This document shows, piece after piece, positions 1 through 25,627 of a DNA stretch of 34,238 nucleotides (the stretch's first letter is position 1; each line of letters begins with the position of its first letter). The translations under genes and the position numbers were made by a program. Below the pieces are notes generated by a model that saw only the letters and a list, made by a program, of their open reading frames with translations, was not told the DNA's origin and searched no databases. The stretch comes from Oscillospiraceae bacterium (GTDB lineage: Bacteria; Bacillota; Clostridia; Oscillospirales; Ruminococcaceae): NCBI GenBank assembly GCA_017462785.1, contig JAFTQJ010000098.1, forward strand, positions 1 through 34,238, read 5' to 3'.

Positions 1-110
1 CTCCCACGACCTTTTTGAAAAAAGGTCGATCAAAAACTTTTGTCCTTGCCTTCGGCGTTAATTGAATGGTTTTTCAACAGACTGTTGGGACGGCGAGAGC
101 CGTCCCATTG
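1..110 (+). repeat. Partial or divergent copy (R0) of the hairpin-array repeat family
   Basis: The stretch holds two perfect hairpins. The first has arms GACCTTTT (8-15) and AAAAGGTC (20-27); the second has arms TGGGACGGC (86-94) and GCCGTCCCA (99-107) with a GAGA loop. Between them, TTTTTCAACAGACTG (70-84) matches the right-hand terminal module of the clearer copies at 12285-12446 and 16695-16912. No open reading frame here looks real. The left part may continue outside the window. Whether the first hairpin belongs to the same unit is uncertain. Confidence 0.55.
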
Positions 111-1157: not shown

Positions 1158-1277
1158 GTTTCTGCGAAACTTCCCCCACCCCCTGCCCCCTCCCCGAGGG
1201 GAGGGGGTGAGTGAGCCGGTGCTCCGCACCGGCACCGGCAAGGGCTATCGCCCTTTGAACCCTATGTTTTTGGGGTT
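1158..1277 (+). repeat. Hairpin-array repeat copy R1 inside the polysaccharide operon
   Basis: Several consecutive perfect hairpins are seen. Arms are GTTTC/GAAAC (about 1158-1170), CCCCCTCCCC/GGGGAGGGGG (1186-1195/1198-1207), GCCGGTGC/GCACCGGC (1215-1222/1226-1233) and AAGGGC/GCCCTT (1240-1245/1250-1255), plus a weaker AACCC/GGGTT at the right end. The order matches the other copies in the window, in particular that at 9955-10090 in the opposite orientation. No U-run follows the hairpins, so it is not a standard terminator. It lies between the two transporter genes. No terminal inverted repeat or target duplication was found for this copy. Confidence 0.8.
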
Positions 1278-1313
1278 TGTCATTTGACACTATTTGGTTT
1301 CAGAGGTTATGTC

Positions 1314-2606
1314 ATGAAAGAAAAAGAAATTGTCATTGATGTGCAGAACATCACCAAAAAATTCAAGATCTATCTCGATAAGGGCAGCCAGCTCAAGGAA
1401 CGTCTGCTGTTCCGGAGCCGCAACCGCTTTGAGGAGCGTGAGGTGCTCAAAGGCATCAGCTTTCAGGTGCGGCGTGGTGAAGCCATCGGTCTGATCGGTC
1501 ATAACGGCTGCGGCAAAAGCACCACGCTCAAACTCCTCACAAAGATCATGTACCCCGACAGCGGCACCATCACCATGAAGGGCAGAGTTTCCAGCCTCAT
1601 TGAGCTTGGTGCCGGATTCCATCCGGATATGAGCGGCAGGGAGAATATCTACACCAACGCCTCCATTTTCGGTCTGACCAAAAAGGAGATCGACAAGCGG
1701 CTCGATGACATCATCCGCTTTTCGGAGCTGGAGCAGTTCATCGACAATCCCGTCCGCACTTACTCCTCCGGTATGTATATGCGGCTTGCGTTTTCGGTTG
1801 CCATCAATGTGGATGCGGACATCCTCCTCATTGATGAGATCCTCGGTGTCGGAGATGCCAATTTTCAGGCGAAATGCTTCAACAAGCTGCGTGAGATCAA
1901 GGCGAGCGGTACGACCATCGTCATTGTATCCCACTCCCTCGGACAGATCGAGCAGATCTGCGAGCGTTCCATCTGGATCCATGAGGGCGTGATCCGTGCA
2001 GAGGGTCCCCCCAAGGAGATCGACCTTGCCTACCTCGAATATATGGGGCAGAAGATACAGGAACGCACTGCACAGGAGCTTGCAGAGCAGGCAGCCGCAC
2101 AGCAGGCGGAGGAAGCCGCAAAGCCAGCCCCCGAAGCAGAAGCTCCCGAGGCTGTGCCCGAACCGGAAGAGCCGGAGGAGGTCAAAAAACGCTGGGGCAA
2201 CGGCAATGCCCGCATTTCCGCCATTCACGTTCTCACCAAGGACGGGCAGAAGCAGCGTGTGTTCCGGACTGGAGATGCCGTCCGCATCCGTGTGGATTAC
2301 AGGGTGAAAAAACCCGTGGAGGATGCTGTGTTCGGCATCGGCATTTTCAACCGTGACGGCGTACAGTGCTACGGCACGAACACCCATATCGACAAGCTGC
2401 CGCAGTTCCGTCTGACGGAAAGCGGCACAGCGGAGATCAGCCTGCATGAAGTGAACCTCCTGCCGGGCGAATATCTCATCGACATTGCCATTGAATCCGG
2501 TGACGGCATCCCCGTGGATTATTACAGAGAAGCCTGCCGCATCGAAATGATCTCACCCATCGGCGATGTCGGCATCGCAAGAATCGGGCACGAATGGACG
2601 GTGTAA
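1314..2606 (+). CDS. wzt: Polysaccharide ABC transporter ATPase with C-terminal glycan-binding domain (Wzt type)
   Basis: This cytoplasmic 430-residue ATPase powers export through the upstream permease. It has Walker A GHNGCGKST (62-70), the ABC signature YSSGM (150-154), Walker B ILLIDE (170-175) and the H-loop His207. After an Ala/Glu/Pro-rich linker (about 250-290) comes a beta-rich C-terminal domain (about 291-430) like the Wzt_C domain of E. coli O8/O9a Wzt, which binds the modified end of the glycan and makes export depend on chain termination. The ATG at 1314 is chosen because AGAGG sits seven bases upstream; an in-frame TTG at 1284 would start inside the repeat region and lacks a site. 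A capping methyltransferase gene follows, as expected if this domain reads a methylated end. Confidence 0.93.
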   Translation: MKEKEIVIDVQNITKKFKIYLDKGSQLKERLLFRSRNRFEEREVLKGISFQVRRGEAIGLIGHNGCGKSTTLKLLTKIMYPDSGTITMKGRVSSLIELGAGFHPDMSGRENIYTNASIFGLTKKEIDKRLDDIIRFSELEQFIDNPVRTYSSGMYMRLAFSVAINVDADILLIDEILGVGDANFQAKCFNKLREIKASGTTIVIVSHSLGQIEQICERSIWIHEGVIRAEGPPKEIDLAYLEYMGQKIQERTAQELAEQAAAQQAEEAAKPAPEAEAPEAVPEPEEPEEVKKRWGNGNARISAIHVLTKDGQKQRVFRTGDAVRIRVDYRVKKPVEDAVFGIGIFNRDGVQCYGTNTHIDKLPQFRLTESGTAEISLHEVNLLPGEYLIDIAIESGDGIPVDYYREACRIEMISPIGDVGIARIGHEWTV

Positions 2607-2634
2607 CCCGTCCGCACCAAAAGGATCGGAATTT

Positions 2635-3801
2635 ATGAGCCATTTAACCAATTTTCTGAATGAATTTTCCCAACGCTCCGGCATGCGTGGGAAACTGACC
2701 AAACGCCTCTTTGCCGGCATGCTTGCAGGCTTGCAGGCGGCACAGCAGGATATGTCCGCACTCCGGCAGGAAATGCAGGAGCAGCAGAAAGAACTGAGTG
2801 CTGCGGATGTGCGGCAGGAGGAACAGACCGCACGTCTGATGCAGGAGCTTCAGTCGCTCCAGAGAACAGCGGAGCAGGAAAAGCTTGCATTGCAGCAGCG
2901 GCTCGATCATGCGGAGCAGGTGAATGCGGACTTGCAGGAACAGCTGCGGCAGATGCAGGAAATGCTTGCCCCCGAGGGTGCGTTCCGTCAGAATCTGGAA
3001 ACGCTGAATGTCAACATGCGGAGCAACAATGCACAGCTCGAAACGCTGCAAAGCGACAATGCCCTGTGCAAGCTCAAGCTCTCAGGACTGGAACGCCGCC
3101 AGAATACCGCCGCACCTGCACAGCAGTCCGGCAGTGCTCCGGCAGTACGGGTGCAGGATTCGGACTATGATACGATCGACTATTTCGATTTTGAGAATCA
3201 TTTCCGTGGAAGCATTGCCCGTATCAAGGAAGCCCAGCGGATGTATCTCCCCTATTTTCAGGGAAAAAAGAACGTCCTCGACATCGGGTGCGGACGTGGG
3301 GAATTCCTCTCCCTCCTGCAAGATGAGGGCATTCCGGCACGGGGCGTGGATGTGTATGAGCCGTATGCGGAATACTGCCGGATGCAGGGACTTTCCGCAG
3401 AATGCGGTGACGGCATTGCCTGCCTGCAAACGCTTGACAGCGTGGATGGTATTTTTGTCGGTCAGGTCGTGGAGCATCTGAAAACCGAGCAGATCACAGC
3501 ACTTTGCAATACCGCCTATGAAAAGCTCACGGACGGCGGCTGTATCGTGATCGAAACCCCGAACCCGACCTCCCTTGCGATCTATACGGGAGCGTTCTAT
3601 ATCGACCCCTCCCACGTCAAGCCCGTCCATCCGCTGACAATGCAGTATTTCCTTGAAAAGGCAGGCTTTACGAACATTGAGATCCTCTATCCGGAACAGA
3701 GCAAGCCGGATGTGCAGATCAGAACGACCGATCCGGACATGCAGAAAATCACAGACATCATGTTCGGTGCACAGGATTATGCGATCATTGCTGTAAAGTG
3801 A
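2635..3801 (+). CDS. Coiled-coil plus SAM-dependent methyltransferase, probable glycan chain terminator
   Basis: This 388-residue protein has two parts. Residues about 30-150 form a long Gln/Glu/Leu-rich coiled coil. Residues about 178-388 are a class I methyltransferase with motif I LDIGCGRGE (215-223), the acidic GVDVYEP loop, QVVEHL (277-282) and ETPNP (307-311). The stretch FDFENHFRGS before motif I and the SHVKPVHPLT segment are typical of methyltransferases found beside Wzm/Wzt exporters, where the WbdD family caps O-antigen chains and uses a coiled coil as a length ruler. In WbdD the coiled coil follows the catalytic part; here it comes first, and no kinase domain is seen. The start at 2635 has AAGGAT upstream. 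Chain termination is an inference from context; the enzyme could also methylate an internal sugar. Confidence 0.85.
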   Translation: MSHLTNFLNEFSQRSGMRGKLTKRLFAGMLAGLQAAQQDMSALRQEMQEQQKELSAADVRQEEQTARLMQELQSLQRTAEQEKLALQQRLDHAEQVNADLQEQLRQMQEMLAPEGAFRQNLETLNVNMRSNNAQLETLQSDNALCKLKLSGLERRQNTAAPAQQSGSAPAVRVQDSDYDTIDYFDFENHFRGSIARIKEAQRMYLPYFQGKKNVLDIGCGRGEFLSLLQDEGIPARGVDVYEPYAEYCRMQGLSAECGDGIACLQTLDSVDGIFVGQVVEHLKTEQITALCNTAYEKLTDGGCIVIETPNPTSLAIYTGAFYIDPSHVKPVHPLTMQYFLEKAGFTNIEILYPEQSKPDVQIRTTDPDMQKITDIMFGAQDYAIIAVK

Positions 3802-3864
3802 CGGCGGGGGACAGCGTTCCCCACATTCGGCTTGCCGCAGCATGATCAGAAAGGAAGACCACTC

Positions 3865-4344
3865 ATGGACAACAAAACCATTCATATAGAAGAAATTATG
3901 CAGAATATCCGGAAGGAGATCAAAGAAAAAGGACTTTCCTCCGATATGCTGAGCTTTGAGGATGTACCCTACCAGAAGCCCGATGCCGCTGTGAACGGTG
4001 CAGGCTCCGAGGAAGTGAAAAATTCCCTCGTTTACCTCAACGGACACTACAATGTCCAGCCCTATAAGCCCCTCGGCGGCAATCCGCTGTTTGTCTTTAT
4101 CAAGAAAGTACTGCGGAAGCTGATGAAATTCTACATTGAACCCATCGTCAATGACCAGAACAATTTCAATGCCAATGTTGTGCGTGTACTGAATGCACAG
4201 CAGAATACCCCTGCACCCGACACCGATGAACTGATGAAGCGGCTCGAAGTGCTCGAACTGAACCAGAAGCAGCTTACCCTGCGTGTTGCTGCACTCCAGC
4301 AGGAAAACGCAGCACTCCGTTCACGCATCGGAAAGCAGGGCTGA
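3865..4344 (+). CDS. Small protein with membrane-type amphipathic helix and C-terminal coiled coil, unknown function
   Basis: The 159-residue product is not recognised as a named family. The N-terminus (IEEIMQNIRKEIKEKG) looks helical, followed by a Pro/Gly-containing loop. Residues about 80-105 form a basic, hydrophobic, probably amphipathic helix (VFIKKVLRKLMKFYIEPIV), then a QNNFNANVVRVLN segment. The last 40 residues are a heptad-like coiled coil. It lies between the capping methyltransferase and the first GT4 gene, with one base before the next start, and AAGGAAG lies at 3851-3857. The simplest guess is a membrane-peripheral adaptor that docks synthesis enzymes or the methyltransferase coiled coil to the membrane. 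This is inference only. Confidence 0.72.
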   Translation: MDNKTIHIEEIMQNIRKEIKEKGLSSDMLSFEDVPYQKPDAAVNGAGSEEVKNSLVYLNGHYNVQPYKPLGGNPLFVFIKKVLRKLMKFYIEPIVNDQNNFNANVVRVLNAQQNTPAPDTDELMKRLEVLELNQKQLTLRVAALQQENAALRSRIGKQG

Positions 4345-4345
4345 T

Positions 4346-5425
4346 ATGAGGATCGTACAGCTGCTGACCACGCTTTCCTTCGGCGATGCTGTCAGCAATG
4401 ACACCATTGCACTGCGTTCCGTGATTGCGGAAATGGGCTATGATACGGCGATCTATGCGGAAAACATTGACCCACGCCTCCCCAAGCACACCGCACTGCA
4501 TGTGGAAAAGCTGAAGGATCTCAAAAAAGATGACATCATCATCTACCATAAATCCACCGGCACGGATCTGAGCTTTTCCCTCGGAAAGTACCCCTGCCGG
4601 AAATTCATGATCTACCACAATATCACACCGCCGGAATTTTTTGTACCCTACAATACAGCGGCGGCTTCCCTCACAGAATACGGTCTGGAGGGCGTGAAGC
4701 ATCTGAAGGATACGGTCGAATACTGCATGGCGGATTCCGGCTTCAACAAGCAGAATCTGCGTGATTTCGGCTTTTCCTGTCCCATTGATGTACGCCCCAT
4801 CCTCATTCCGTTCGAGGATTACAACAAGGAACCCGACTCCGCCGTTCTCCGCAGATACACCGAGGACGGCTGGACGAACATCGTCTTTGTCGGCAGAATC
4901 GCCCCGAACAAGAAGCAGGAAAATGTCATCCGGACATTCTACCACTACAAGAAGCTCAACCCCAAGTCCCGCCTGATCTTTGTCGGCTCCTATCAGGGCA
5001 TGGAAAATTACTATGACCGCCTGCAAACCTATGTGCAGGCTCTTGGGCTTTCCGATGTCATTTTCACAGGACATATCAAATTCGCCGAAATCCTTGCCTA
5101 TTACCGTGCAGCCAATGTCTTTCTGTGCATGAGTGAGCATGAGGGCTTCTGTGTGCCGCTGGTCGAGGCAATGCATTTTCAGGTGCCCGTCATTGCCTAT
5201 GATACCAGTGCGATTGCTGACACCCTCGGCGGCAGCGGTATCCTCCTGCAAAGCAATGACCCCCTTGAAGCAGCAATGGTCATTGACCGCCTTGTGACGG
5301 ATGAAGAGCTGCAAAAACAGGTCATTGCAGGACAGAACAGGCGGCTTGCAGATTTTCAGTATGAAAAGGTGCGTGAGCTGTTTATCTCACAGCTTCGCAG
5401 TTTTATCGGGGGAGGGGATAAGTGA
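4346..5425 (+). CDS. Glycosyltransferase, GT4 family (first of three)
   Basis: This 359-residue GT-B fold enzyme should transfer a nucleotide-sugar residue to the growing polysaccharide on the cytoplasmic side. The C-terminal half shows the GT4 hallmarks: FVGRIAPNKKQENVI (donor-site lysine region) and the EX7E motif EHEGFCVPLVE, followed by AMHFQVPVIAYD. The N-terminal half (about 1-170) is the acceptor domain. The ATG at 4346 is chosen because it begins the typical MRIVQLL strand; upstream in-frame codons fall inside the preceding gene. It starts one base after the previous stop and its stop overlaps the next ATG by one base, so it is translationally coupled at both ends. Sugar and linkage cannot be read from sequence. 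Confidence 0.88.
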   Translation: MRIVQLLTTLSFGDAVSNDTIALRSVIAEMGYDTAIYAENIDPRLPKHTALHVEKLKDLKKDDIIIYHKSTGTDLSFSLGKYPCRKFMIYHNITPPEFFVPYNTAAASLTEYGLEGVKHLKDTVEYCMADSGFNKQNLRDFGFSCPIDVRPILIPFEDYNKEPDSAVLRRYTEDGWTNIVFVGRIAPNKKQENVIRTFYHYKKLNPKSRLIFVGSYQGMENYYDRLQTYVQALGLSDVIFTGHIKFAEILAYYRAANVFLCMSEHEGFCVPLVEAMHFQVPVIAYDTSAIADTLGGSGILLQSNDPLEAAMVIDRLVTDEELQKQVIAGQNRRLADFQYEKVRELFISQLRSFIGGGDK

Positions 5426-6618
5426 TGAAAACGATCGCCTTTGTTGCCCCTTGGTTCGATGACCATATCCCCGGCGGTGCGGAGATGGAGCTGAGAGAGG
5501 TTTCCGCCCATCTGCACAAGGCAGGTGTACCCGTCGAGATCCTCACGACCTGCGTAAAGGAATTCGGCTCGGACTGGAGCGTGAATTTCCACAAGGCAGG
5601 CACCTCCACGCTCGAAAGCGGCATCCCCATCCGCCGTTTCCCCGTCAGAAAACGGGATACAGCACGCTTTGATGCCGTCAATGCAAAGCTCATCCAGAAA
5701 ATGCCCGTCACGCTGGAGGAGGAGGACGTGTTCCTCTCCGAGATGGTGAACAGTCCGGAGCTGTATGAGTATATCCGGACGCATCAGGACGCATATTCGG
5801 TGTTTGTCCATATCCCCTACATGTTCGGCACGACCTATTACGGCGTGCAGGCGGCACCGGAAAAGGCAGTGCTGATCCCCTGTTTCCATGATGAGGGCTA
5901 TGCCTATTTCCAGCGGTTCCGTGAGGTGTTCCGCACGGCTGCCGGCATGGTCTACAATGCAAGACCCGAAATGGAGCTGGCAGAGCGTCTGTACGGCTTT
6001 TCGGAAACCGGTGTCCGGCAGATCCTCATGGGCATCGGCATGGATACCTCCATTTCCGGTGATGCGGAGCGTTTCCGGAAGAAATACCGCATGGATCAGC
6101 CCTTTCTGCTCTATGCCGGAAGAAAGGACACGGGAAAGAATGTCCACACGCTTCTGCAATACTTCTCCGAGTACAGAAAGCGGCATGAAACCGACCTTCA
6201 GCTCGTGCTGATCGGCGGCGGTTCGATTGAAATTCCGGCGGATGTCCGTGATGCCGTGCACGATCTCGGCTTTGTGGATGCACAGGACAAATACGATGCC
6301 TGTGCCGCAGCAGAGCTTTTGTGCCAGCCGTCGAAAAATGAGAGCTTTTCGCTGGTCATCATGGAAAGCTGGCTCTGCGGCAGACCGGTTCTCGTGCATG
6401 ATGCCTGTGCGGTAACGAAGAATTTCGCAAGGGAATCGAACGGCGGCTTGTACTTTGCAGATTATTTTGAATTTGAGGGCTGTGTGAACTACATCCTCCA
6501 TCATCCGGAGATCGCCCGAATCATGGGCGAAAACGGCGGTTCCTATGTACGGGAGCATTTTGACTGGGATGTGATCACGCAGAAATATCTGGCGTTTTTT
6601 GCGGAAATAGAGGGCTGA
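5425..6618 (+). CDS. Glycosyltransferase, GT4 family (second of three)
   Basis: This 397-residue GT-B glycosyltransferase opens with KTIAFVAPWFDDHIPGGAE, the glycine-rich first loop of GT4 enzymes. LYAGRKDTGKNVHTLLQYF and the EX7E-type segment NESFSLVIMES mark the donor domain. It closely resembles the next gene in layout and motifs (LQYFSEYRKRH against FQYFLEYKGRH), so the two look like tandem duplicates that diverged in specificity. GGAGGGG at 5411-5417 supports the ATG at 5425; a GTG one codon earlier at 5422 is possible. Its start overlaps the preceding stop. It acts in the cytoplasm on the lipid-linked glycan, with unknown sugar. Confidence 0.88.
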   Translation: MKTIAFVAPWFDDHIPGGAEMELREVSAHLHKAGVPVEILTTCVKEFGSDWSVNFHKAGTSTLESGIPIRRFPVRKRDTARFDAVNAKLIQKMPVTLEEEDVFLSEMVNSPELYEYIRTHQDAYSVFVHIPYMFGTTYYGVQAAPEKAVLIPCFHDEGYAYFQRFREVFRTAAGMVYNARPEMELAERLYGFSETGVRQILMGIGMDTSISGDAERFRKKYRMDQPFLLYAGRKDTGKNVHTLLQYFSEYRKRHETDLQLVLIGGGSIEIPADVRDAVHDLGFVDAQDKYDACAAAELLCQPSKNESFSLVIMESWLCGRPVLVHDACAVTKNFARESNGGLYFADYFEFEGCVNYILHHPEIARIMGENGGSYVREHFDWDVITQKYLAFFAEIEG

Positions 6619-6679
6619 TCCCCGCAAAGCCATTCCCATGAAACCCGCTGCTGATATAACGATTCAGAAAGGTGATTAT

Positions 6680-7864
6680 ATGAAAAGAATCGCACTTGTG
6701 AACCAACGCTATGGACTCGAAGTCAACGGCGGTTCTGAGTATTATACAAGACTCATCGCAGAACGTCTGACTTCCCATTATCAGGTGGATGTCATTACCA
6801 CCAAGGCTCTGGAATATACCACTTGGGAAAACCACTATACCGCCGATGAGGAGATCCTCAACGATGTCCGTGTCCTGCGGTTTCCGGTGAAGCATCCCCG
6901 TGCAAAGGACTTCAACGAATGCAACGGCTCCTATTTGCAGGCACTCTCGGACGGCAAGCCCGACCCTGCAAAGGAGGCAGTCTGGTTTGAAAAACAGGGA
7001 CCTTACTGTCCGGCAGCCATTGACTATATCCGTGCCCACAAAAATGACTATGATGCGTTCATTTTTGTCACCTACCTCTACTATCTCACCGTCATGGGCA
7101 TGCCCGAGGTCAGGGAAAAAGCCATCTTCATCCCCACCGCACACGAGGAACCGTTCATCCATTTCAAAACCTATGAAACCCTCTTCACCCTCCCGAAAGC
7201 CTATATCTTCCTCACGGACGAGGAAAAGGAGCTGGTGCAGGGGCTGTTCCATACGGAGCACATTCCCTGCGATGTGATGGGAACGGGCGTGGATATTCCA
7301 GAAAAGCCCGATGCTCTGCGGTTCCGTGAAAAATACGGCATCACGGACGATTACCTCATCTATGTCGGCAGGATCGACGAGGGCAAGGACTGCCCACGCC
7401 TGTTCCAGTATTTTCTCGAATACAAGGGGCGGCATCCCGAAAGCCGCTTAAAGCTCGTCCTCATGGGCAAGCCTGCCTGTATGATCCCAAGACACGGGGA
7501 CATCATCAGTCTGGGATTTGTCAGCGAGGAGGACAAATTTGACGGCATTTCCGGTGCAAAGGCACTTGTCCTCCCATCGAAGTTCGAGAGCCTGTCCATC
7601 TCCGTGCTCGAAGCTATGGCTCTGCATGTGCCGGTCATCGTCAACGGTGTCTGTGAGGTGCTCAAGGGGCACTGCCAGAAGAGCAATGCAGGGCTGTATT
7701 ACTATGATTATCTCGAATTTGAGGGCATCGTGGATTATCTTTTCTCCCATCCGACGGAATACGCCGCTATGTGTGAGAATGCACGGTGCTATATTGACCA
7801 ATACTATGACTGGAATGTCATCATGGAGAAATTCCGTGCAGTGATCGGTGAGGTGACAGGATGA
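6680..7864 (+). CDS. Glycosyltransferase, GT4 family (third of three)
   Basis: The 394-residue product starts with KRIALVNQRYGLEVNGGSE, a GT4 first loop. It continues with the donor-site segment IYVGRIDEGKDCPRLFQYF and the EX7E motif KFESLSISVLEAM. Architecture and motif spacing match the preceding gene, suggesting duplication. The start at 6680 follows AAAGGTGAT; the ORF is open from 6638 but no better ribosome site exists there. About 60 bases separate it from the previous stop, and its own stop overlaps the following membrane-protein gene as ATGA. It is a probable polymerising or branch-adding sugar transferase of the exported glycan. Confidence 0.88.
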   Translation: MKRIALVNQRYGLEVNGGSEYYTRLIAERLTSHYQVDVITTKALEYTTWENHYTADEEILNDVRVLRFPVKHPRAKDFNECNGSYLQALSDGKPDPAKEAVWFEKQGPYCPAAIDYIRAHKNDYDAFIFVTYLYYLTVMGMPEVREKAIFIPTAHEEPFIHFKTYETLFTLPKAYIFLTDEEKELVQGLFHTEHIPCDVMGTGVDIPEKPDALRFREKYGITDDYLIYVGRIDEGKDCPRLFQYFLEYKGRHPESRLKLVLMGKPACMIPRHGDIISLGFVSEEDKFDGISGAKALVLPSKFESLSISVLEAMALHVPVIVNGVCEVLKGHCQKSNAGLYYYDYLEFEGIVDYLFSHPTEYAAMCENARCYIDQYYDWNVIMEKFRAVIGEVTG

Positions 7865-9927: not shown

Positions 9928-9954
9928 GCCCGTAAGCACAGTCCCATTTCAGAG

Positions 9955-10090
9955 ATTCAGAGAGTTCCAAGGGGCGGCAGCTCTTTGGTCGGTGCCGGTG
10001 CGAAGCACCGGCTCAATCTCCCCCTCCCCTTGGGGAGGGGGCAGGGGGTGGGGGCAATCTTTGCAGGACTTTCCAGAAGTCCCCCACCTT
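9955..10090 (-). repeat. Hairpin-array repeat copy R2, inverted relative to R1
   Basis: Read on the minus strand this has the same order as R1: a GGACTT/AAGTCC hairpin, a CCCCCACCCCCTG lead, CCCCCTCCCC/GGGGAGGGGG (plus 10020-10029/10032-10041), GCCGGTGC/GCACCGGC (9994-10001/10005-10012) and a decayed hairpin around CCAAAGAGC/GCCCCTTGG with two mismatches. It fills the gap between the GT-C-like gene and the GT2 gene, in opposite orientation to transcription. No gene is seen in it. Confidence 0.78.
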
Positions 10091-10118
10091 TGTATAGAAA
10101 TAGAAAGGAAAGAGAACA

Positions 10119-11072: not shown

Positions 11073-11074
11073 TT

Positions 11075-11110
11075 AAAAAAACGGCGATACCTTCCGGTAC
11101 CGCCGTTTTT
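11075..11110. terminator. Bidirectional intrinsic terminator between convergent genes
   Basis: The stem is ACGGCG/CGCCGT extended by TACC/GGTA, with a TTCC loop, an A-run on the left and a T-run on the right. It ends the plus-strand polysaccharide operon and the minus-strand nadA-like gene. Confidence 0.88.
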
Positions 11111-11124
11111 ATCGTCTATGATTC

Positions 11125-12069
11125 TCAGATCACGCCAAACGCCTGATACATCTTTGTGATCAGATTCGTGATCTTCTCCGAGGATGCAGGATCCACCTTC
11201 ACCTGTGTTCTTGCACCTGCATTCGCATTGGCAAAATCGCAGGCTTCCATCACCTTGTCCAGACGCATTACATTGAACACGCTGCACGAAATATAGCTGC
11301 TCAGGTGAATGAACTGCTTTTCGGGGAATTCTCTGCACATACGCAGATAGAAATTCTTCTCCACACCGAGGATGAAGGTCGGACATGCAGAAGTGCGGAT
11401 GATCTCCCTCATTCTGCCCGTGCCGATCGCATAGTCCGCTTTTGCCGTGATCGCTTCACAGCATTCCGGATGCACCATCACAAGAGCATCGGGATACTCT
11501 GCACGCAGATCCTCCAGATCATTCACAGAAGCACTGTTGTAAACATTGCAGGTGGGCTGATGCGGATAGACCAGAACCTCCTTGTTCACCTTACGCAGAG
11601 CCTCCGTGGTGCAGTTATATTCACCCACATACAAAAGACGCTCCGCATCCACACTGTTGATGACCTCCGGTACATCGCCCGGAAATGCGATATAGTCCGC
11701 AAGCAGCTTGATGCTCAGCGGAGAGGTGCCGTATACCACCAGCGGCAGCTCCGGATACTGGTCACGCCAGAGCTTCACATGGTCGAACTGGAGCATGCTG
11801 TCCATTGCCACCGGACATGTGGAACCCCTGCCGGGAACATAGACATTCTTGTCTTTCAGGTATGCCGCTGTCAGCTCTGCAAAGAAAGTCGGAGCCAGTA
11901 CGAGCACATTTTTCTGCTCACAGCCCTTGAGGACACTCTGGAAGAAATCACGGCTGTCACCGAGTACATCGGCGATCTCATGCGTTTCAGCAGGTGCATA
12001 GTGATGTGCGATCACATAGATGTCATTCTCCTTTTTCAGCTGAAGAATCTTTTTGATCTGTTCATTCAT
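11125..12069 (-). CDS. nadA: Quinolinate synthase family protein (NadA-like, divergent)
   Basis: The 314-residue protein has the pseudo-threefold layout of NadA, a 4Fe-4S enzyme that condenses iminoaspartate with dihydroxyacetone phosphate to quinolinate in NAD synthesis. AHHY (21-24), ADVLGDS (33-39), a cysteine near 85 in STCP, HPEC (200-203) and a late cysteine (262) match the expected cluster and active-site positions. Differences exist: the glutamine after HHY is missing, the usual YVN segment reads YGT (113-115), and the usual CXVH segment reads PTCNVYN. nadB and nadC are not nearby. It is monocistronic, with a near-consensus promoter at 12153-12181. It may be a true NadA or a paralogue with another substrate; the gene symbol is therefore provisional. 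Confidence 0.72.
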   Translation of the reverse strand: MNEQIKKILQLKKENDIYVIAHHYAPAETHEIADVLGDSRDFFQSVLKGCEQKNVLVLAPTFFAELTAAYLKDKNVYVPGRGSTCPVAMDSMLQFDHVKLWRDQYPELPLVVYGTSPLSIKLLADYIAFPGDVPEVINSVDAERLLYVGEYNCTTEALRKVNKEVLVYPHQPTCNVYNSASVNDLEDLRAEYPDALVMVHPECCEAITAKADYAIGTGRMREIIRTSACPTFILGVEKNFYLRMCREFPEKQFIHLSSYISCSVFNVMRLDKVMEACDFANANAGARTQVKVDPASSEKITNLITKMYQAFGVI

Positions 12070-12081
12070 GTCATTCCACCC

Positions 12082-12099
12082 TGATACCGAAAGGTATCA
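12082..12099 (-). promoter_or_regulatory. Leader hairpin just upstream of the nadA-like gene
   Basis: A perfect 7-bp inverted repeat, TGATACC/GGTATCA with a 4-base loop, ends 13 bases before the ATG, next to a poor ribosome site (GGGTGG). It could be an operator or a translation-limiting hairpin. No known NAD-regulon box was recognised. Confidence 0.45.
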
Positions 12100-12152
12100 T
12101 TTCCTTTCCCAATTTGTCGTTTGCCGTCATATCTGCCCGACGGTCTGTAAAT

Positions 12153-12181
12153 AGTATAACAGATTTTGAAAGTGATGTCAA
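12153..12181 (-). promoter_or_regulatory. Sigma-A-type promoter of the nadA-like gene
   Basis: On the minus strand a perfect TTGACA (plus 12176-12181) is followed after 17 bases by TATACT (plus 12153-12158). The predicted leader is about 75-80 bases and includes the hairpin at 12082-12099. Confidence 0.85.
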
Positions 12182-12260
12182 TGTGTAGGAATGAATTTGC
12201 TCATGCAATGCTTCCCTTTTTGGTGCGATTTGTTCATTGGTTTCCTCCTATATGCAAACA

Positions 12261-12471
12261 AGGTACGGTGCACCACCGTACCCTCAGCTTGTCAAAAAAG
12301 TTTTTTTCTGGGGTAGCACCCCAAAGATTGCCCCCACCCCAACCCCTCCCCCAGAGGGGGAGGGGCTATATTGCGAGGGTACTGCGTACCCTCAACCCGC
12401 CAAAGGACTTCGTCCTTTGAACCTGACAAGGTTTTTCGACAGACTGAGGGTACGGTGCACCACCGTACCCT
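12261..12471 (+). mobile_element. MITE-like hairpin-array element R3 with flanking palindromic direct repeats
   Basis: The core 12285-12446 begins CAGCTTGTCAAAAAAG and ends in the inverted form of CAGTCTGTCGAAAAACC, so it has imperfect terminal inverted repeats. Inside are hairpins TGGGGT/ACCCCA, CCCCTCCCCC/GGGGGAGGGG (12343-12352/12356-12365), GAGGGTAC/GTACCCTC (12375-12382/12386-12393) and CAAAGGAC/GTCCTTTG (12401-12408/12412-12419). A 23-bp sequence containing the palindrome arms GGTACGGTG/CACCGTACC occurs on both sides (12262-12284 and 12449-12471). No transposase gene is present. It lies between two minus-strand genes, 20 bases past the end of the sortase operon. Confidence 0.8.
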
Positions 12472-12493
12472 GCAACAAGGGAATGCCCCTATG

Positions 12494-13480
12494 TTATGCT
12501 TTTTTGGTTTCCGATTCCTTTTCTGTTTCAGATTTCTTTTCTGTATCGGAGTCCTGTTCGGTCACTTCCTGTGATGCTTCTTCCGGTGCTTCTTCTGCAT
12601 CATTGCCTTTTCGTCCGCACACCGCCCGAACGATCCCAAAGACCGCCAGACAGCCAATGGAAACAGCAAGCACAATGATCGCCATAGTCTGTGCACGGCT
12701 CACCAGAAGCTCCAGAAAGCCCACCACTGCGGCGAAGATCTGCGGATCCTTGATGGCAAAGCCTGCAAAATAATCCGTTGCCGTCACATAGATGCAGGGA
12801 GCGAGCAGGAGCAGGGAAGCCGTCAGTCCGGCTGTGCCGCACCAGTAGAGCATGTGGGAGATCTGCCGCAGATTGCACAGCAGAAGCAGTACCAGCACCA
12901 CTGCAAGACCGATCAGACAGGCAGTCTGTGCCATACCCAGATAGGTCAGGTAATGCCGTGCTGTACCCAGCCAGCCCTTTTCATACATCATCGTCAGCTT
13001 GAAGGTGTCCGCTACAAACAGGATCTCCGCTTCCGCTTCTGCGATCACGGAGGCTACCTTCTCTTCGTATACCTTGTCCTTGACGACGTTGTTTTCTTCC
13101 GCATAGCTGCTGAAGAACGTCTGCACGGATTGTTCCAGTGCAGTGAAATCCATCGTGAATCCGAATTCCTCGGTCTTTCCGCTGAGATAGTCAAACGCCT
13201 GTCCAACGCTTGCATTGATCGCCTTTTCCAGCTCGTCACGATCCATCACTTCCGTGAAAACTTCCGCCGGAATGCCGGTGCTGTTCGCACGGGTCTTGAA
13301 ATAGGTTTCCAGAGAGCTGTATGCCTTGTCCGCAAGCCCCTCCTGTGCCGTCACAACGCTGAATGTTTCCGCATTCAGCACCTGCGTCCTGACAAATGCC
13401 GTCAGTCCGCAGCCCAGCAGCAGGAATACCAGCAGAAAGGTCAGCAGGACATTCGGGAAATAACATCTGATCTTGCTCAT
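12494..13480 (-). CDS. Sortase-linked membrane protein with large external domain, unknown function
   Basis: The 328-residue protein has one N-terminal hydrophobic helix (about 9-30), an external domain of about 150 residues rich in Glu, Asp and Tyr, then three more helices (about 185-205, 215-237 and 262-287). It ends in a strongly charged Glu/Lys/Thr tail (about 295-328), probably cytoplasmic. No named family was recognised; the helix-domain-three-helix layout resembles DUF1461/TIGR01906 proteins but their signature residues are not evident. Its ATG overlaps the sortase stop as ATGA, with GGAGG in front, so the two are translationally coupled. A role in presenting substrates to, or restraining, the sortase is inference. 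It is the last gene of the operon. Confidence 0.78.
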   Translation of the reverse strand: MSKIRCYFPNVLLTFLLVFLLLGCGLTAFVRTQVLNAETFSVVTAQEGLADKAYSSLETYFKTRANSTGIPAEVFTEVMDRDELEKAINASVGQAFDYLSGKTEEFGFTMDFTALEQSVQTFFSSYAEENNVVKDKVYEEKVASVIAEAEAEILFVADTFKLTMMYEKGWLGTARHYLTYLGMAQTACLIGLAVVLVLLLLCNLRQISHMLYWCGTAGLTASLLLLAPCIYVTATDYFAGFAIKDPQIFAAVVGFLELLVSRAQTMAIIVLAVSIGCLAVFGIVRAVCGRKGNDAEEAPEEASQEVTEQDSDTEKKSETEKESETKKA

Positions 13481-14235
13481 CCTGCCGCCTCCTCCGTTGT
13501 CAGTTCTGCCTGTGATGCAGAATCCGTGTAAAACTGTTTGCTCACCAGCGAGCAGAGCACGCCCACTCTTGTGGTGGAGGTGCCCAGCACCTGTGCTTCA
13601 CAGGTGTACAGTGTCAGCCGGTCGGTGTCCATCGGCAGAATATGGGTCTTGTCCGTATTTTCAAACTTTACCTGCTCAAACGCTTTGTAGGTGAAGATGC
13701 CGTACTGTGTGTACAGCACGATCTCATCCCCCGGCTCGATCTTGTGCAGATCTGCAAAAAAGGTGTTCACATGGGCATCAATGACCGCATTGCCCACCTC
13801 GCCCAGCACCTTTGAGGAGGATGCCTGACAAGCTCCACGCTCCAGCAGCTCCGGAGTGGAACCCCAGTAGACCGGAACAGAGAGGTTGATCGCCTCGCAT
13901 TCCAGCACCGCATACTGCTCACCGAAGGCAGGACGGATGACCGTTCCTGTGTCGGAGAACTGTTCCGCTTCCTCTTCAGCGGGCTTCTGTGTGCTGATCT
14001 CGTTTTCCTTGATGACCAGCCCGTCCAGACCGGAGGCGGGCTTGATCTTCATATCGTCCATGAAAATGATGTTCAGATAGGTCTGTACTTTCTCATAGGG
14101 CTTGATGAGTGCCACTGCACTGACTGCCGTGCAGAGGATCACCAGCAGCACCGCCGTCAGAATGTAGACAAACGGATGTACGCCCTTTCTTGTCTTTGTT
14201 TTTGTCGCCAATTTCTGCTCCTTTCTGACAGCCAT
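13477..14235 (-). CDS. Sortase, class D-like
   Basis: The 252-residue membrane-anchored transpeptidase has one N-terminal helix (about 21-44), a spacer, and a sortase barrel (about 105-232). Catalytic residues are visible: His155 in IDAHVNTFFADL, Cys212 in LTLYTC and Arg223 in TTRVGVL. The glycine usually before the catalytic His is Ala here. Sortases cleave a C-terminal sorting signal and join the protein to the cell wall or to pilin. It starts one base after the stop codon of the upstream gene for a secreted protein with a C-terminal helix, the likely substrate. Only one sortase is present and no pilin-like genes are adjacent, so a housekeeping or dedicated single-substrate anchor is more likely than a pilus assembly enzyme. 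Confidence 0.92.
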   Translation of the reverse strand: MAVRKEQKLATKTKTRKGVHPFVYILTAVLLVILCTAVSAVALIKPYEKVQTYLNIIFMDDMKIKPASGLDGLVIKENEISTQKPAEEEAEQFSDTGTVIRPAFGEQYAVLECEAINLSVPVYWGSTPELLERGACQASSSKVLGEVGNAVIDAHVNTFFADLHKIEPGDEIVLYTQYGIFTYKAFEQVKFENTDKTHILPMDTDRLTLYTCEAQVLGTSTTRVGVLCSLVSKQFYTDSASQAELTTEEAAG

Positions 14236-14237
14236 GC

Positions 14238-15119
14238 TTACTGCACGCCGCCGTCAGCACGGCAGAGATGACGGTAAACCAGCACAAAGCCAGCCGCTGC
14301 CAGCAGTACCGCTGCCGCAGAAGCCGCCAGCAGTCCGTCATAGGAAATGCCGGTCTCATCAATGGTGATGCCGGTCGCACTCTTGTCGATGATCGTGCCC
14401 TCATTATCACGCACGGTGATAGCGATGCCCTCCGCAGAAATGGAGTCCACCGCAATATTCATATTCATGTCCTTTGCCGCATCAATGTAGCCCTGTAACA
14501 GCTCCGCCTGATCGTTCACATTCATCTGCTTGATGATGCTGTTGCGTTCCGCCGGTGTCAGGTTGTTGAGGAATGCTTCCTTGTCCGCTGCACTCATGGA
14601 ATTGACATAGGCGATCTTCTCGTCCAGTGTCATGTTGATGAAGTCGGAGGAGCTGACTGTATTGCCGGAGGGCTGTGAAGGTGCTGTGGAATTCACAGTG
14701 CCCGATGTGCCGGAGGAATTCACCTCGCCGCCGGTGCTGTTCGTGCCGGAGCTGCCGGAATCTGCCGCAGAGCTGTCTGCGGAGGGCGGTGCGGTTTCAT
14801 TTCCTGTGCGGTCAGGTTCGGAAGCAGGCGGTTCTGCCGTGCTGCCGGTATCAAAAATGCTGTCGATCTTGTCGTTCGCCTGTGTATCATACTCACAGAG
14901 CTTGGCATATGCCGCTTCAAGATCCTCCTGTGTGTATTCGCCGGTTGCCCAGTAATTGTAGCCGAGCTGCACCTGCTCCTCAGGGAAGCCGACCTCTCTT
15001 GCCTTCTGTGCGACCTCATCCACGGTCACAGCCGCCGCATGCAGCCCTGCACCGCAGCAAAGACAGCCTGCTGCAAGCATTGCAGCGGTCACTCTGATAC
15101 GCATTGTGTGTTTGTTCAT
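14238..15119 (-). CDS. Secreted surface protein, probable sortase substrate
   Basis: The 293-residue protein has a signal peptide (about 1-30), a helical Glu-rich domain (about 31-90), and a low-complexity Ser/Thr/Gly/Pro/Asn stretch (about 91-158) like a wall-spanning linker. A second helical domain follows (about 160-220), then a small beta-like segment (222-252). The C-terminus reads IDETG (253-257), a hydrophobic helix (about 261-282) and a short tail with Arg and His. This is the layout of a sortase sorting signal, but the pentapeptide is not LPXTG. No named domain was recognised. It lies directly before the sortase gene and 36 bases after the GTPase gene. Confidence 0.8.
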   Translation of the reverse strand: MNKHTMRIRVTAAMLAAGCLCCGAGLHAAAVTVDEVAQKAREVGFPEEQVQLGYNYWATGEYTQEDLEAAYAKLCEYDTQANDKIDSIFDTGSTAEPPASEPDRTGNETAPPSADSSAADSGSSGTNSTGGEVNSSGTSGTVNSTAPSQPSGNTVSSSDFINMTLDEKIAYVNSMSAADKEAFLNNLTPAERNSIIKQMNVNDQAELLQGYIDAAKDMNMNIAVDSISAEGIAITVRDNEGTIIDKSATGITIDETGISYDGLLAASAAAVLLAAAGFVLVYRHLCRADGGVQ

Positions 15120-15155
15120 TGTATACCTTCCTTTTTCTGTGCGTGAGCGTTCGGC

Positions 15156-16289
15156 TCACTTGTTTGCTTTCAGTCTTTCTTTGAACAGCTCCTTCATCCT
15201 CAGCCTGCCGGCATCGGATGTCAGCTCTCCGGCTTTCAGTTCCCCCTTGTAGACCGCCGTCATGAGCTGGATGTATGCCTCGCCCAGAGCTGTGGTCAGA
15301 AGTCCTGCCGTTGCACCGGAGATCATGCCGCCTGCCGCCGTACCTGCTCCGGGAATGAGCTTGACGAGGTTGGCAACGATCGTTCTGCCGAGGATGGTCG
15401 CACCGCCTGCACCGAGGGTCGAGGACACAAAGCCCGTGATGATGCTCCGGCTCACATTCAGACCGAAGATTGCTGTAATGGAGGCGATCATCGTGACCTG
15501 TGTCGGCACGAGGAGGGCAGCATCGGCAAAGGGGATGGGAGCAAAGCCCTCACCAAAGGCTGCTGTAGTCGCTGCCGCAACTGCGGCGTGGGCACGTCTT
15601 TTTTTTTGCTCCAATGAAGCGATCTGGACATTCTGGAGGGTGTCCTGCAATTCGTCCGGCAGCACCTGCGTCATGACTTCAATGAGGGTATCCAGACCGT
15701 ATGCCTTGACGGTATAGTCCTCGTCGATCTCATAATCGGCTGCAAGCACCGGAACGACCTGACAGACGCTGAGGTTCTCATTGAGGATGCAGTCCCGCAT
15801 CTGCTTGGCGTTCTTCTTCGAGAAGGATTTGGTCAGTACAAGGATGACGGGAACCTGTGTCATCTGGTTTTCCTCTGCGAAATCCCGCAGCCAGTCGATC
15901 TCCTCCGGCTCGATCCGGTCGGAGGCGGTGTTGATGCAGTACCAGATGCAGTGGATCGCCTGATTGATGTCCTTTGCAGCGTGCCCCTTCCGGATGGTGT
16001 CGAGGATCTCCTGCTTGACTTCCTTCTGTGCGTCCTTTCCCAGCTCAAAACCCCTTGTATCGTAGATGGACAGGGGAAAATTCTTCTTGCTGTACTGCTT
16101 CATATGCCCCGTCACCGGCATACCGATACCGGTATCCGCCAGATTTTCACGGAAAATGCTGTTGATGAGCGTACTCTTGCCGACTCCTGTCTTGCCGGCT
16201 ACAATGATATTCAGGTGCTTGAGATTGCGGATGCGTTCATTGATCGCATTCATGCAGTCCTGCACCATTTTGCCTGTGTCGATTGTCAT
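15156..16289 (-). CDS. GTPase with C-terminal hydrophobic helical domain (HSR1/DUF697-like)
   Basis: The 377-residue protein has a TRAFAC-class G domain. G1 is GKTGVGKST (32-40), the threonine of G2 lies near PVTGH, G3 is DTRG (77-80) and G4 is TKS within VLTKSFSKK, an atypical replacement for NKXD. Residues about 230-350 are rich in Ala, Gly and hydrophobics (PFADAALLVPTQVTMIASI, GFVSSTLGAGGATILG), as in DUF697/YcjF-like proteins that associate with membranes. It is the first gene of the operon with the surface protein, sortase and membrane protein, and has its own promoter. A role in membrane or envelope stress or in localising the sortase apparatus is possible but unproved. Confidence 0.86.
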   Translation of the reverse strand: MTIDTGKMVQDCMNAINERIRNLKHLNIIVAGKTGVGKSTLINSIFRENLADTGIGMPVTGHMKQYSKKNFPLSIYDTRGFELGKDAQKEVKQEILDTIRKGHAAKDINQAIHCIWYCINTASDRIEPEEIDWLRDFAEENQMTQVPVILVLTKSFSKKNAKQMRDCILNENLSVCQVVPVLAADYEIDEDYTVKAYGLDTLIEVMTQVLPDELQDTLQNVQIASLEQKKRRAHAAVAAATTAAFGEGFAPIPFADAALLVPTQVTMIASITAIFGLNVSRSIITGFVSSTLGAGGATILGRTIVANLVKLIPGAGTAAGGMISGATAGLLTTALGEAYIQLMTAVYKGELKAGELTSDAGRLRMKELFKERLKANK

Positions 16290-16347
16290 GGGTTTGTCCC
16301 CCTTTTCGGAAATTCCGTCATTTTATGCAATATTCCCCATCTTATTT

Positions 16348-16376
16348 ATTATACCAGAAACCCGCAAAAAAAGCAA
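16348..16376 (-). promoter_or_regulatory. Promoter of the GTPase-sortase operon
   Basis: On the minus strand TTGCTT (plus 16371-16376) and TATAAT (plus 16348-16353) are separated by 17 bases. The leader to the GTPase ATG is about 55 bases. Confidence 0.78.
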
Positions 16377-16401
16377 GTGCCAGATTCTGCCTTTCAAGCG
16401 A

Positions 16402-16428
16402 ATGCCCCGCAAGGGTTCTGCGGGGCAT
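16402..16428 (-). terminator. GC-rich 3' hairpin after the acyl carrier protein gene
   Basis: Arms ATGCCCCGC (16402-16410) and GCGGGGCAT (16420-16428) form a 9-bp stem four bases past the stop. A T-run does not follow directly, so termination strength is uncertain. Confidence 0.6.
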
Positions 16429-16432
16429 GGGA

Positions 16433-16672
16433 TCATTCTTCTTCGGGCATGTTGGCTCTCAGGTAATTCACAATGTCGTTGACCGTGCGGATCTCATCCA
16501 CCGCTTCATCCGGAATGCTGACATCCGTCACATTCTCAATTGCTACGATCAGCTCTACTGCATCCATGGATGTTGCATTCAGATCCTCCAGAATATCCAT
16601 GTCCTCTGTGATGTCCTCTGCATCCATGCCAAAATGCTCTGCAATGATGCCTGCAACTGTTTCAAACTCCAT
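16433..16672 (-). CDS. acpP: Acyl carrier protein
   Basis: The 79-residue acidic, helical protein carries acyl chains on 4'-phosphopantetheine. The attachment serine is Ser35 in NATSMDAVELIVAIE, a variant of the usual DSLD motif (here TSMD), followed by the typical helix II. The start at 16672 is chosen because GGAGG lies seven bases before it; the ATG at 16678 would touch the ribosome site, and the longer open frame runs into a repeat. No fatty-acid synthesis genes are adjacent, so it may be a second ACP rather than the main AcpP. A MITE separates the gene from its likely promoter at 16939-16968. Confidence 0.9.
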   Translation of the reverse strand: MEFETVAGIIAEHFGMDAEDITEDMDILEDLNATSMDAVELIVAIENVTDVSIPDEAVDEIRTVNDIVNYLRANMPEEE

Positions 16673-16683
16673 AACCATACCTC

Positions 16684-16694
16684 CATTTATTACA
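16684..16694. repeat. Left 11-bp target-site duplication of MITE R4
   Basis: CATTTATTACA here is identical to 16913-16923 and directly abuts the element's left terminal repeat. Confidence 0.85.
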
Positions 16695-16912
16695 CAGCTT
16701 GTCAAAAAAGTCTTTTTGGAGGGGGAGAACCCCAAAGATTGCCCCCACCTCACCGGTGCCGTCCCCTCTGTCACTTCGTGACGTCTCCCCACCCCGTGGG
16801 GAGCAGCCCCAACCCCTCTCCGAGGGGAGGGGCTGCATTGCGAGGGTACTGCGTACCCTCAACCCGCCAAAGGACTTTGTCCTTTGAACTTGATCAGTTT
16901 TTTGACAGACTG
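16695..16912 (+). mobile_element. 218-bp MITE-like hairpin-array element R4 in the ACP leader
   Basis: The ends are CAGCTTGTCAAAAAA on the left and the inverted form of CAGTCTGTCAAAAAA on the right, 13 of 15 bases matching. Exact 11-bp direct repeats flank it. Inside are arms GTCAC/GTGAC (16770-16774/16778-16782), CTCCCCAC/GTGGGGAG (16785-16792/16796-16803), a CCCCTCTCC/GAGGGGAGGGG-region stem (16813-16832), GAGGGTAC/GTACCCTC (16842-16849/16853-16860) and CAAAGGAC/GTCCTTTG (16868-16875/16879-16886). It encodes no transposase. Compared with R3 it carries an extra pair of hairpins. The insertion lies about 12 bases upstream of the ACP ribosome site. Confidence 0.88.
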
Positions 16913-16923
16913 CATTTATTACA
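16913..16923. repeat. Right 11-bp target-site duplication of MITE R4
   Basis: CATTTATTACA follows directly after the terminal CTG of the element and matches 16684-16694 exactly. Confidence 0.85.
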
Positions 16924-25267: not shown

Positions 25268-25380
25268 TTAGGAAAGTTCTGTGAAGCTTCCCCCACCCCA
25301 ACCCCACCCCGTGGGGAGGGGCTTATCATGGAGGGGGCTGCGCCGCCTCCACCGCCCAAGGGACTTCGTCCCTTGGAACC
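25268..25380 (+). repeat. Hairpin-array repeat copy R5
   Basis: It shares the CTTCCCCCACCCC lead with R1. Hairpins follow: CCCC-A-CCCC/GGGG-A-GGGG, a GGAGGGGGC/GCCGCCTCC stem with one G-G mismatch (about 25330-25350), and CCAAGGGAC/GTCCCTTGG (25356-25364/25368-25376). The last stem differs from R3 and R4 by one compensated A-T to G-C change. It lies between GH13 and glycogen phosphorylase. Confidence 0.78.
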
Positions 25381-25383
25381 CTG

Positions 25384-25471: not shown

Positions 25472-25627
25472 AACTTTGTTTCCTGCATTCTCTGCCAAGA
25501 GAAAGATTGCTTGCAGTCCTAACGTTTTGCCTTTGTCCCCGCAGGGGGCAATGGCAAAACGCCTTGGGATTCCAAAGGGATCACATCCCTTTGGCGGGGG
25601 TGCAGGGGGCAGAGCCCCCTGCAAAAC
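25472..25627 (+). repeat. Type-B hairpin-array repeat, copy B1, at the 3' end of glgP
   Basis: It shares AACTTTGTTTCCTG, the CCTTGGGATTCCAAAGGGAT block and the AGGGGGCAGAGCCCCCTGC block with the copy at 29266-29419. Hairpins are CGTTTTGCC/GGCAAAACG (25523-25531/25553-25561), CCAAAGGGAT/ATCCCTTTGG (25572-25581/25585-25594) and GCAGGGGGC/GCCCCCTGC (25602-25610/25614-25622). Short inverted ends TTGCAG/CTGCAA bound it. The third hairpin ends 23 bases past the glgP stop. Confidence 0.82.

What the first reader, a model, noticed from the sequence alone, without database searches (positions are those of the whole stretch)
1158..16912. Mosaic intergenic repeat family made of hairpin arrays with compensating arm changes (type A)
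Copies at 1158, 9955, 12261, 16695 and 25268 share one order of small hairpins with 2-4-base loops: a first hairpin, a C-rich/G-rich stem, a variable stem and a final stem. The variable stem is GCCGGTGC/GCACCGGC in R1 and R2, but GAGGGTAC/GTACCCTC in R3 and R4. The final stem is CAAAGGAC/GTCCTTTG in R3 and R4, but CAAGGGAC/GTCCCTTG in R5. Arms change together and pairing is kept, which is seen directly. Covariation in intergenic repeats suggests selection for RNA or cruciform structure, or gene-conversion-like copying between palindrome arms. No U-runs follow, so plain termination does not explain them. I know no named family that fits, but I could not search.
Basis: partly seen in the sequence, partly recalled or inferred. 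Interest (0 to 1): 0.75.

Follow-up and report, generated by a model that had tools for sequence, protein, structure and literature searches.

The report
Mobile repeat that copies terminator hairpins
Two of the five hairpin repeats are non-autonomous transposons of a kind that tends to land at the foot of a gene-ending hairpin and leave a full copy of it on each side, so a terminator may survive; gene-bearing relatives in other bacteria do the same.

Summary
The hairpin arrays are real, but the five copies are not one family. R3 (12285-12446) and R4 (16695-16912) belong to a 160-220 bp element with about 40 further copies found in this genome and imperfect inverted ends (CAGCTTGTCAAAAAA / CAGTCTGTCGAAAAA). 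It is a MITE with the ends of an IS1182-family transposon; a transposase fragment with such ends lies in the same genome. Many copies sit at the foot of a terminator-like hairpin, with the whole hairpin repeated on the other side; two orthologous sites in relatives have one hairpin and no element. Full-length IS1182 elements of other, mostly Bacillota, genomes do the same: of 55 with both flanks, 41 have an abutting direct repeat, and each of the 41 is a hairpin; repeat and hairpin lengths agree (19-38 nt, r=0.99). Shifted controls: 0 repeats of 45. Papers seen say IS1272 of this family replaces hairpins without duplication; one drew whole-hairpin duplication as a hypothesis. Likely mechanism: the transposase joins element ends to the 5' feet of a palindrome, and gap repair copies the hairpin.

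The parts
12262..12284 (.). Left copy of the duplicated target hairpin (GGTACGGTG-CAC-CACCGTACC + CT) of R3
   Evidence: 23-nt direct repeat abutting the element
12285..12446 (+). R3: type A MITE, 162 bp, ends CAGCTTGTCAAAAAA / CAGTCTGTCGAAAAA (inverted), with internal hairpins
12447..12471 (.). Right copy of the duplicated target hairpin of R3 (AGGGTACGGTG-CAC-CACCGTACCCT)
16684..16694 (.). 11-nt direct repeat CATTTATTACA left of R4 (no hairpin)
   Evidence: read
16695..16912 (+). R4: type A MITE, 218 bp, carrying an extra GC-rich module (about 16750-16806) seen also in other copies and in type C
16913..16923 (.). 11-nt direct repeat CATTTATTACA right of R4
   Evidence: read
1..84 (-). One end (CAGTCTG end) of a copy of a second, ~290 bp MITE (type C) with the same kind of ends, cut by the contig start; a hairpin TGGGACGGC-GAGA-GCCGTCCCA follows at 86-107
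1173..1262 (+). R1: copy of a ~90-nt repeat (type D), no inverted ends or target duplication seen; lies between an ABC2_membrane gene (369-1148) and a Wzt-like ATPase gene (from 1314)
9958..10054 (-). R2: type D copy
25287..25381 (+). R5: type E repeat, nearest to L244-L246

Best explanation
R3 and R4 are non-autonomous elements (MITEs) mobilised by a transposase of the IS1182 family. The transposase prefers a near-perfect hairpin, often an intrinsic terminator, as its target. [quoted passage not shown] Gap repair then copies everything between the feet, so the insertion reads hairpin-element-hairpin and the target duplication is as long as the hairpin. The inner feet lose the U-tract, the outer ones keep it. 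The element therefore sits between a silenced and a working terminator hairpin, which makes insertions cheap for the host. Repeated insertions, nesting and recombination between GC-rich palindromes build the hairpin mosaics. SHOWN from sequence: the ends, hairpin-element-hairpin, two empty orthologous sites, the same pattern for full-length IS1182 elements, the agreement of duplication and hairpin lengths, and tracts at outer but not inner feet. INFERRED: action in trans by IS1182 transposase, attack at 5' feet of an extruded cruciform, the effect on termination, and how the mosaics arose.
For: Copy number: 43 match rows in the own genome, about 40 distinct copies, 40 of 140 candidates scored (R4 is not among the rows); 168 hits to the end pattern with <=1 mismatch against 29 for the reversed control pattern. 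Junctions of 30 type A copies: a stem scoring >=6 touches the left junction in 20 of 28 and the right in 20 of 29; 14 of 27 with both flanks have a long abutting direct repeat, 13 of them scored hairpins. Background: 30 of 600 random window positions; flanks 70 nt further out give 2 of 27, 1 of 25 and 0 repeats of 25. Empty sites: own C46 copy against G002:C81 and own C85 copy against G004:C5, one hairpin each. Autonomous element: IS1182 transposase fragment on C50 (NF033551, 272 bits, cut-off 270) with right end CAGCCCGTCCAAAAA; contig C49 begins with the left end CAGTCTGTCGAAAAA; both lie beside the same 34-nt hairpin. Named genomes: of 80 IS1182 loci, 65 gave an end pair of this type (15 did not); hairpin at the left junction 58 of 60, right 58 of 60; abutting repeat in 41 of 55, each a hairpin; repeat end against hairpin foot r=0.99, 19-38 nt, within one base in 38 of 41. 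A first, cruder pairing kept 54 loci: 48 of 49, 50 of 51, 34 of 46; its control 70 nt outward 2 of 48, 3 of 45, 0 repeats of 45. U- or A-tract at an outer foot in 7 of 13 type A and 27 of 34 IS duplications, at inner feet 0 of 47.
Against: No transposition was observed. No complete IS1182 was found in the own genome: the transposase is cut by a contig end, and that C49 and C50 hold one element is inferred. G002 and G004, rich in the MITE, show no IS1182 transposase (93% and 77% complete). 13 of 27 type A copies with both flanks lack a long abutting repeat; some (L013 AACCA, L028 ATAAA, R4 11 nt) have short non-hairpin repeats, so hairpins are preferred, not required. 14 of 55 IS copies lack the repeat; in 13 of these a hairpin still stands at each end, cause unknown. 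A crude count of flanking open frames showed no convergent-gene bias for type A (++ 8, -- 6, -+ 5, +- 3, n+ 1, 7 too short), though that method is weak. IS1272 of the same family is reported to replace hairpins without duplication (PMC5678879, PMC4923244).
Confidence: 0.86

Rival explanations
1. A structured RNA or cruciform element kept by selection for its fold, spread by an unknown route; flanking hairpins are terminators that it needs.
For: Arms covary in the R1/R2 family (8 of 24 pairs); tracts at outer hairpin feet suggest 3' UTR-like places.
Against: Type A has transposon ends and, in many copies, the same hairpin on both sides, different at each locus; empty sites exist; gene-bearing elements with the same kind of ends behave alike. 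Stem 2 is nearly invariant in type A (35 of 36 copies that fitted the search expression). No Rfam match.
Confidence: 0.1
2. Stem arms are kept complementary by template switching between arms during replication (quasipalindrome correction), without selection for structure.
For: In two own-genome copies (L012, L029) the two flanking hairpins, presumably identical at insertion, differ by an inverted loop. One-sided intermediates are seen in stem 3.
Against: Two cases only; it explains upkeep of palindromes, not their spread, and does not compete with transposition as the origin of type A.
Confidence: 0.35
3. IR-replacing transposition as described for IS1272: the element replaces the hairpin, and the flanking hairpins come from later events.
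For: Same transposase family; IS1272 targets hairpins (PMC5678879, PMC4923244, passages read). In 14 of 55 IS copies no repeat is seen.
Against: 41 of 55 IS and 14 of 27 type A copies carry the repeat on both sides, abutting the ends; the two empty sites have one hairpin.
Confidence: 0.04
4. REP/BIME-like palindromes mobilised by a RAYT (Y1) transposase.
For: Short intergenic palindromes in arrays.
Against: Ends are inverted repeats shared with a DDE transposase element, and long target duplications are present. RAYT genes were not searched for.
Confidence: 0.02

Closest known systems
IS1182 transposon family (NF033551; DDE transposase, PF13751/PF01609)
   Same: 15-nt ends of the type CAGnnTGTCnAAAAA on the MITE and on full-length elements; hairpin targets
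   Different: Types A and C: no gene seen in the copies read. Target duplication is typically a whole hairpin of 19-38 nt; a Paracoccus member, ISPse1, is tabulated with '4' (I take this column as repeat length; the header was not in the passage, PMC3281130)
IS1272 / TnSha1 of staphylococci (IS1182 family; PMC5678879, PMC4923244, passages read)
   Same: Insertion at hairpins, often terminators, with no sequence consensus in the target
   Different: IS1272 is reported to delete or replace the hairpin with no duplication; here the hairpin is kept and copied. Wan et al. 2017 drew whole stem-loop duplication only as a hypothetical pathway b
Pneumococcal RUP, BOX and SPRITE repeats (named in review PMC10969869, passages read)
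   Same: Small repeats that cluster and insert into one another; SPRITE is terminator-like
   Different: Not compared by sequence here; no whole-hairpin duplication stated in the passages I saw
REP sequences as targets of insertion sequences (PMC1525189, seen in a search listing only)
   Same: Palindromes used as insertion targets
   Different: There, by its title and abstract start, the target is a repeated palindrome family; here hairpins of many different sequences serve

Membership tests
MITE of the IS1182 family | Terminal inverted repeats matching those of an autonomous IS1182 element | tested here: met
   Type A ends CAGCTTGTCAAAAAA and CAGTCTGTCGAAAAA; own IS left end CAGTCTGTCGAAAAA; same or similar ends on IS1182 loci of other genomes
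MITE of the IS1182 family | Target duplication and empty sites showing mobility | tested here: met
   14 of 27 type A copies with long abutting repeats; two empty orthologous sites
MITE of the IS1182 family | IS1182 transposase in the same genome | tested here: met
   C50 fragment, 272 bits against a cut-off of 270; truncated by the contig end
MITE of the IS1182 family | Mobilised by that transposase | not testable with these tools
   needs a transposition assay
IS1272-type IR-replacing insertion | Target hairpin removed and no target duplication | tested here: not met
   14 of 55 IS copies without a repeat remain unexplained
Structured RNA family (Rfam) | Match to a curated covariance model | tested here: not met
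   0 matches, gathering threshold, whole window
Structured RNA family (Rfam) | Covarying base pairs | tested here: inconclusive
   8 of 24 pairs in the R1/R2 family; 6 of 26 in type A plus R1 and R5, mostly from those two rows; arm copying could give the same signal; R-scape not available
Intrinsic terminator | GC stem followed by a U-tract | tested here: inconclusive
   Internal stems lack it by eye; duplicated flanking hairpins have a tract at an outer foot in 34 of 47
REP/RAYT | Associated Y1 transposase | not tested
   no search made

The most novel reading that the evidence does not exclude
A large group of IS1182 transposases in Bacillota, and their MITEs, practise structure-measured transposition: the duplication is not a fixed number of bases but one target hairpin, so each insertion into a terminator regenerates a terminator and exposes the element to read-in transcription from the upstream gene. 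This turns terminators into safe havens and builds the intergenic hairpin mosaics of ruminococci.
Probability: 0.6. Interest if true: 0.8.

Novelty: new variant of a known kind. Interest (0 to 1): 0.66.

Why it matters
Many DDE transposons duplicate a fixed number of target bases (general knowledge; a passage of PMC5678879 gives 8 and 5 bp examples). A duplication as long as the target's hairpin suggests that the transposase reads DNA structure. It also offers an explanation of how mobile DNA can crowd into terminators without breaking gene ends, and where intergenic hairpin arrays come from. The pairs of once-identical hairpins left behind are natural replicates for measuring how palindromes mutate. 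IS1182 copies of this kind lie in named isolates or cultured genera (Bacillus, Acetobacterium, Sporosarcina), so the idea is directly testable.

Tried and rejected
One family for all five copies: rejected after separate searches with R3, R1 and R5. Rfam: nothing. Autonomous partner by NF033551 in 19 genus genomes: matches in 9, over the cut-off in the own genome only, so relatives did not give a full IS; the named-genome scan did. Strong covariation inside type A: mostly two outlying rows. Gene orientation as proof of terminator sites: crude count uninformative. Recombination between copies as the cause of unequal flanking hairpins: comparing 79 junction flanks of the own genome showed me no reciprocal exchange, but it showed contig-end pairs sharing one hairpin, as expected for long elements split by assembly. 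Literature searches. In their listings and the passages read I found no paper that reports whole-hairpin duplication by IS1182 elements; PMC12056078 (passage) says that such transposases act with or without duplication and may recognise a DNA structure; PMC4923244 (passage) cites Siguier 2015 for palindromic targets of some IS1182 members. That review and one more id I tried for a 2014 review are not held, so prior notice in ISfinder or TnPedia cannot be excluded; I recall, without a source seen, that a wide range of repeat lengths is tabulated for this family. No structure prediction, covariance model or R-scape run was made.
Full report
WHAT IS THERE. The window is contig C52 of a 2.58 Mb, 103-contig genome. 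A search with 12261-12480 (R3) gave 43 match rows in this genome, about 40 distinct copies, with 40 of 140 candidates scored; most rows cover a constant stretch of about 150-165 bp. R4 is not among those rows but has the same ends. Reading 30 copies with flanks shows constant ends: CAGCTTGTCAAAAAA on the left in 18 of 30 and CAGTCTGTCGAAAAA as the inverted right end in 19 of 30. A pattern for these ends with up to one mismatch hits 168 times against 29 for the reversed control pattern. I call this type A. A second element of about 290 bp (type C; full copy in L041) has the same kind of ends; the window itself begins inside one.

TARGETS AND DUPLICATIONS. In many copies a hairpin stands directly against the left end and the same hairpin directly after the right end; its sequence differs from locus to locus. 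With a simple stem score, 20 of 28 left and 20 of 29 right junctions have a hairpin touching the junction; 14 of 27 copies with both flanks have a long abutting direct repeat, 13 of them scored hairpins. Random window positions reach that score in 30 of 600 (42-nt stretches against 45), and flanks taken 70 nt further out give 2 of 27, 1 of 25 and no repeats in 25. Not every copy fits: L013, L028 and window R4 have short non-hairpin repeats (AACCA, ATAAA, CATTTATTACA), and others have different or no hairpins on the two sides. R3 in the window is flanked by a 23-nt hairpin repeat.

EMPTY SITES. A joined-flank query for two loci was searched in 18 congeners plus the own genome; 15 of 19 matched at least one flank. 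For the C46 locus I read the stretch after the left gene in nine congeners; only G002 keeps both neighbouring genes side by side in the search rows, and it has a single hairpin of similar stem followed by a T-run. For the C85 locus, G004 has one hairpin only, while G002 carries an insertion at the corresponding place, with another hairpin sequence on both sides and other internal modules: apparently an independent hit on the same terminator position. Two sites are a small sample.

AUTONOMOUS RELATIVES. The own genome holds an IS1182-family transposase fragment (C50, 272 bits against a cut-off of 270). Its right end is CAGCCCGTCCAAAAA (inverted), followed by a 34-nt hairpin; contig C49 starts with the left end CAGTCTGTCGAAAAA beside the same hairpin. 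That this is one element split by assembly is inferred. The fragment was used to fetch 80 loci from named genomes (more existed than were kept). Pairing ends of the form CAGnn(T/C/G)G(T/A) gave 65 of 80 loci; 15 gave none, 8 of them with under 430 nt upstream or under 130 nt downstream of the match. In the 65, a hairpin touches the left end in 58 of 60 and the right end in 58 of 60; 41 of 55 with both flanks have an abutting direct repeat, each of the 41 a hairpin; repeat end and hairpin foot agree within one base in 38 of 41, r=0.99, 19-38 nt. An earlier pairing (54 loci) gave 48 of 49, 50 of 51 and 34 of 46, and its control 70 nt outward 2 of 48, 3 of 45 and 0 of 45. Several loci come from one genome or species, so they are not all independent. 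Copies with the repeat include Chakrabartyella piscis (four copies, four hairpins), Acetobacterium, Gemmiger, Oscillibacter valericigenes, Bacillus, Sporosarcina, Mesobacillus, Metabacillus and Romboutsia. Of the 14 of 55 without the repeat, 13 still have a hairpin at each end; the cause is open.

HOW IT PROBABLY WORKS. A DDE transposase that joins both 3' ends at the 5' feet of a palindrome's two strands would, after gap repair, leave hairpin-element-hairpin. Wan et al. 2017 (PMC5678879, passages read) drew this as a hypothetical pathway b while arguing for replacement without duplication for IS1272; Furi et al. 2016 (PMC4923244, passages) report hairpin targets, deletions and no duplication. 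The present data are what pathway b predicts. Outer feet have a U- or A-tract in 7 of 13 type A and 27 of 34 IS duplications, inner feet in 0 of 47 (window background 1.4%). So, by inference, the first hairpin met by transcription is silenced as a terminator, the element is transcribed with the upstream gene, and termination happens at the second hairpin. A crude count of flanking open frames showed no bias to convergent genes and does not help this reading.

MOSAICS AND COVARIATION. Type A or parts of it occur in 9 of 31 genomes searched, all of one genus (own plus 8 of 18 congeners; 0 of 12 others); in some only internal modules match. In G002 and G004, by eye, 10 of 20 fetched stretches show hairpin-element-hairpin, and copies carry 60-80 nt modules after the CCCCCACC motif or inside the GAGGGTAC hairpin. 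A shared module also sits in R4, in L043/L044 and inside type C (L037). L047 shows type C inserted at the foot of the GCCGGTGC hairpin of an R1-like repeat. R1 and R2 belong to a ~90-nt repeat with no such ends seen (45 match rows, 40 of 100 candidates scored; the weakest are type A or partial). There, arms do change together: on 20 aligned copies, 8 of 24 pairs with changes on both sides, 15 cells, at most 5 when partners are slid. In 24 type A cores plus R1 and R5, 6 of 26 pairs, 8 cells, 6 of them in R1 or R5 by my reading. Selection or copying between arms remains open; two flanking hairpin pairs that differ by an inverted loop (L012, L029) suggest that arm or loop switching happens.

VERDICT. 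Type A is a MITE with IS1182-type ends. The wider finding is that IS1182-group elements commonly duplicate whole hairpins. Its novelty is limited by what I could not read (Siguier reviews, ISfinder).

Noticed in passing
window 25530-25622 and 29328-29420: Another repeat pair (84% identical over 93 nt) with CCAAAGGGAT/ATCCCTTTGG and CAGGGGGC/GCCCCCTG hairpins, a different intergenic family.
   Followed up: no
L012 and L029 (own genome C24 start, C53:1282-1450): The two hairpins flanking one element differ only or mainly by inversion of the loop, a natural trace of strand switching in a palindrome.
   Followed up: partly
L265 (G000:C96:7250-7500): A ~74-bp fold-back miniature of type A that looks like two right ends around one CAAAGGGC hairpin, with a different hairpin on each side.
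   Followed up: no
L111 (G004:C39): Two different elements in a row separated and followed by the same hairpin (element-hairpin-element-hairpin): repeated hits on one terminator.
   Followed up: no
L010 orthologs: L264 (G002:C10) and L263 (G004:C5): Apparently independent insertion of related MITEs at the orthologous terminator in two species whose hairpin sequences differ; a third species is empty.
   Followed up: yes
13 IS loci incl. L152, L165-L168, L181, L187, L191, L193: Full-length IS1182 copies with a hairpin at both ends but no direct repeat between them; cause not settled.
   Followed up: partly
contig ends of the own genome (C73/C56, C88/C2, C44/C82, C57/C65, C68/C20): Pairs of contig ends share the same or a similar flanking hairpin, as expected if long elements with hairpin duplications break the assembly.
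   Followed up: partly
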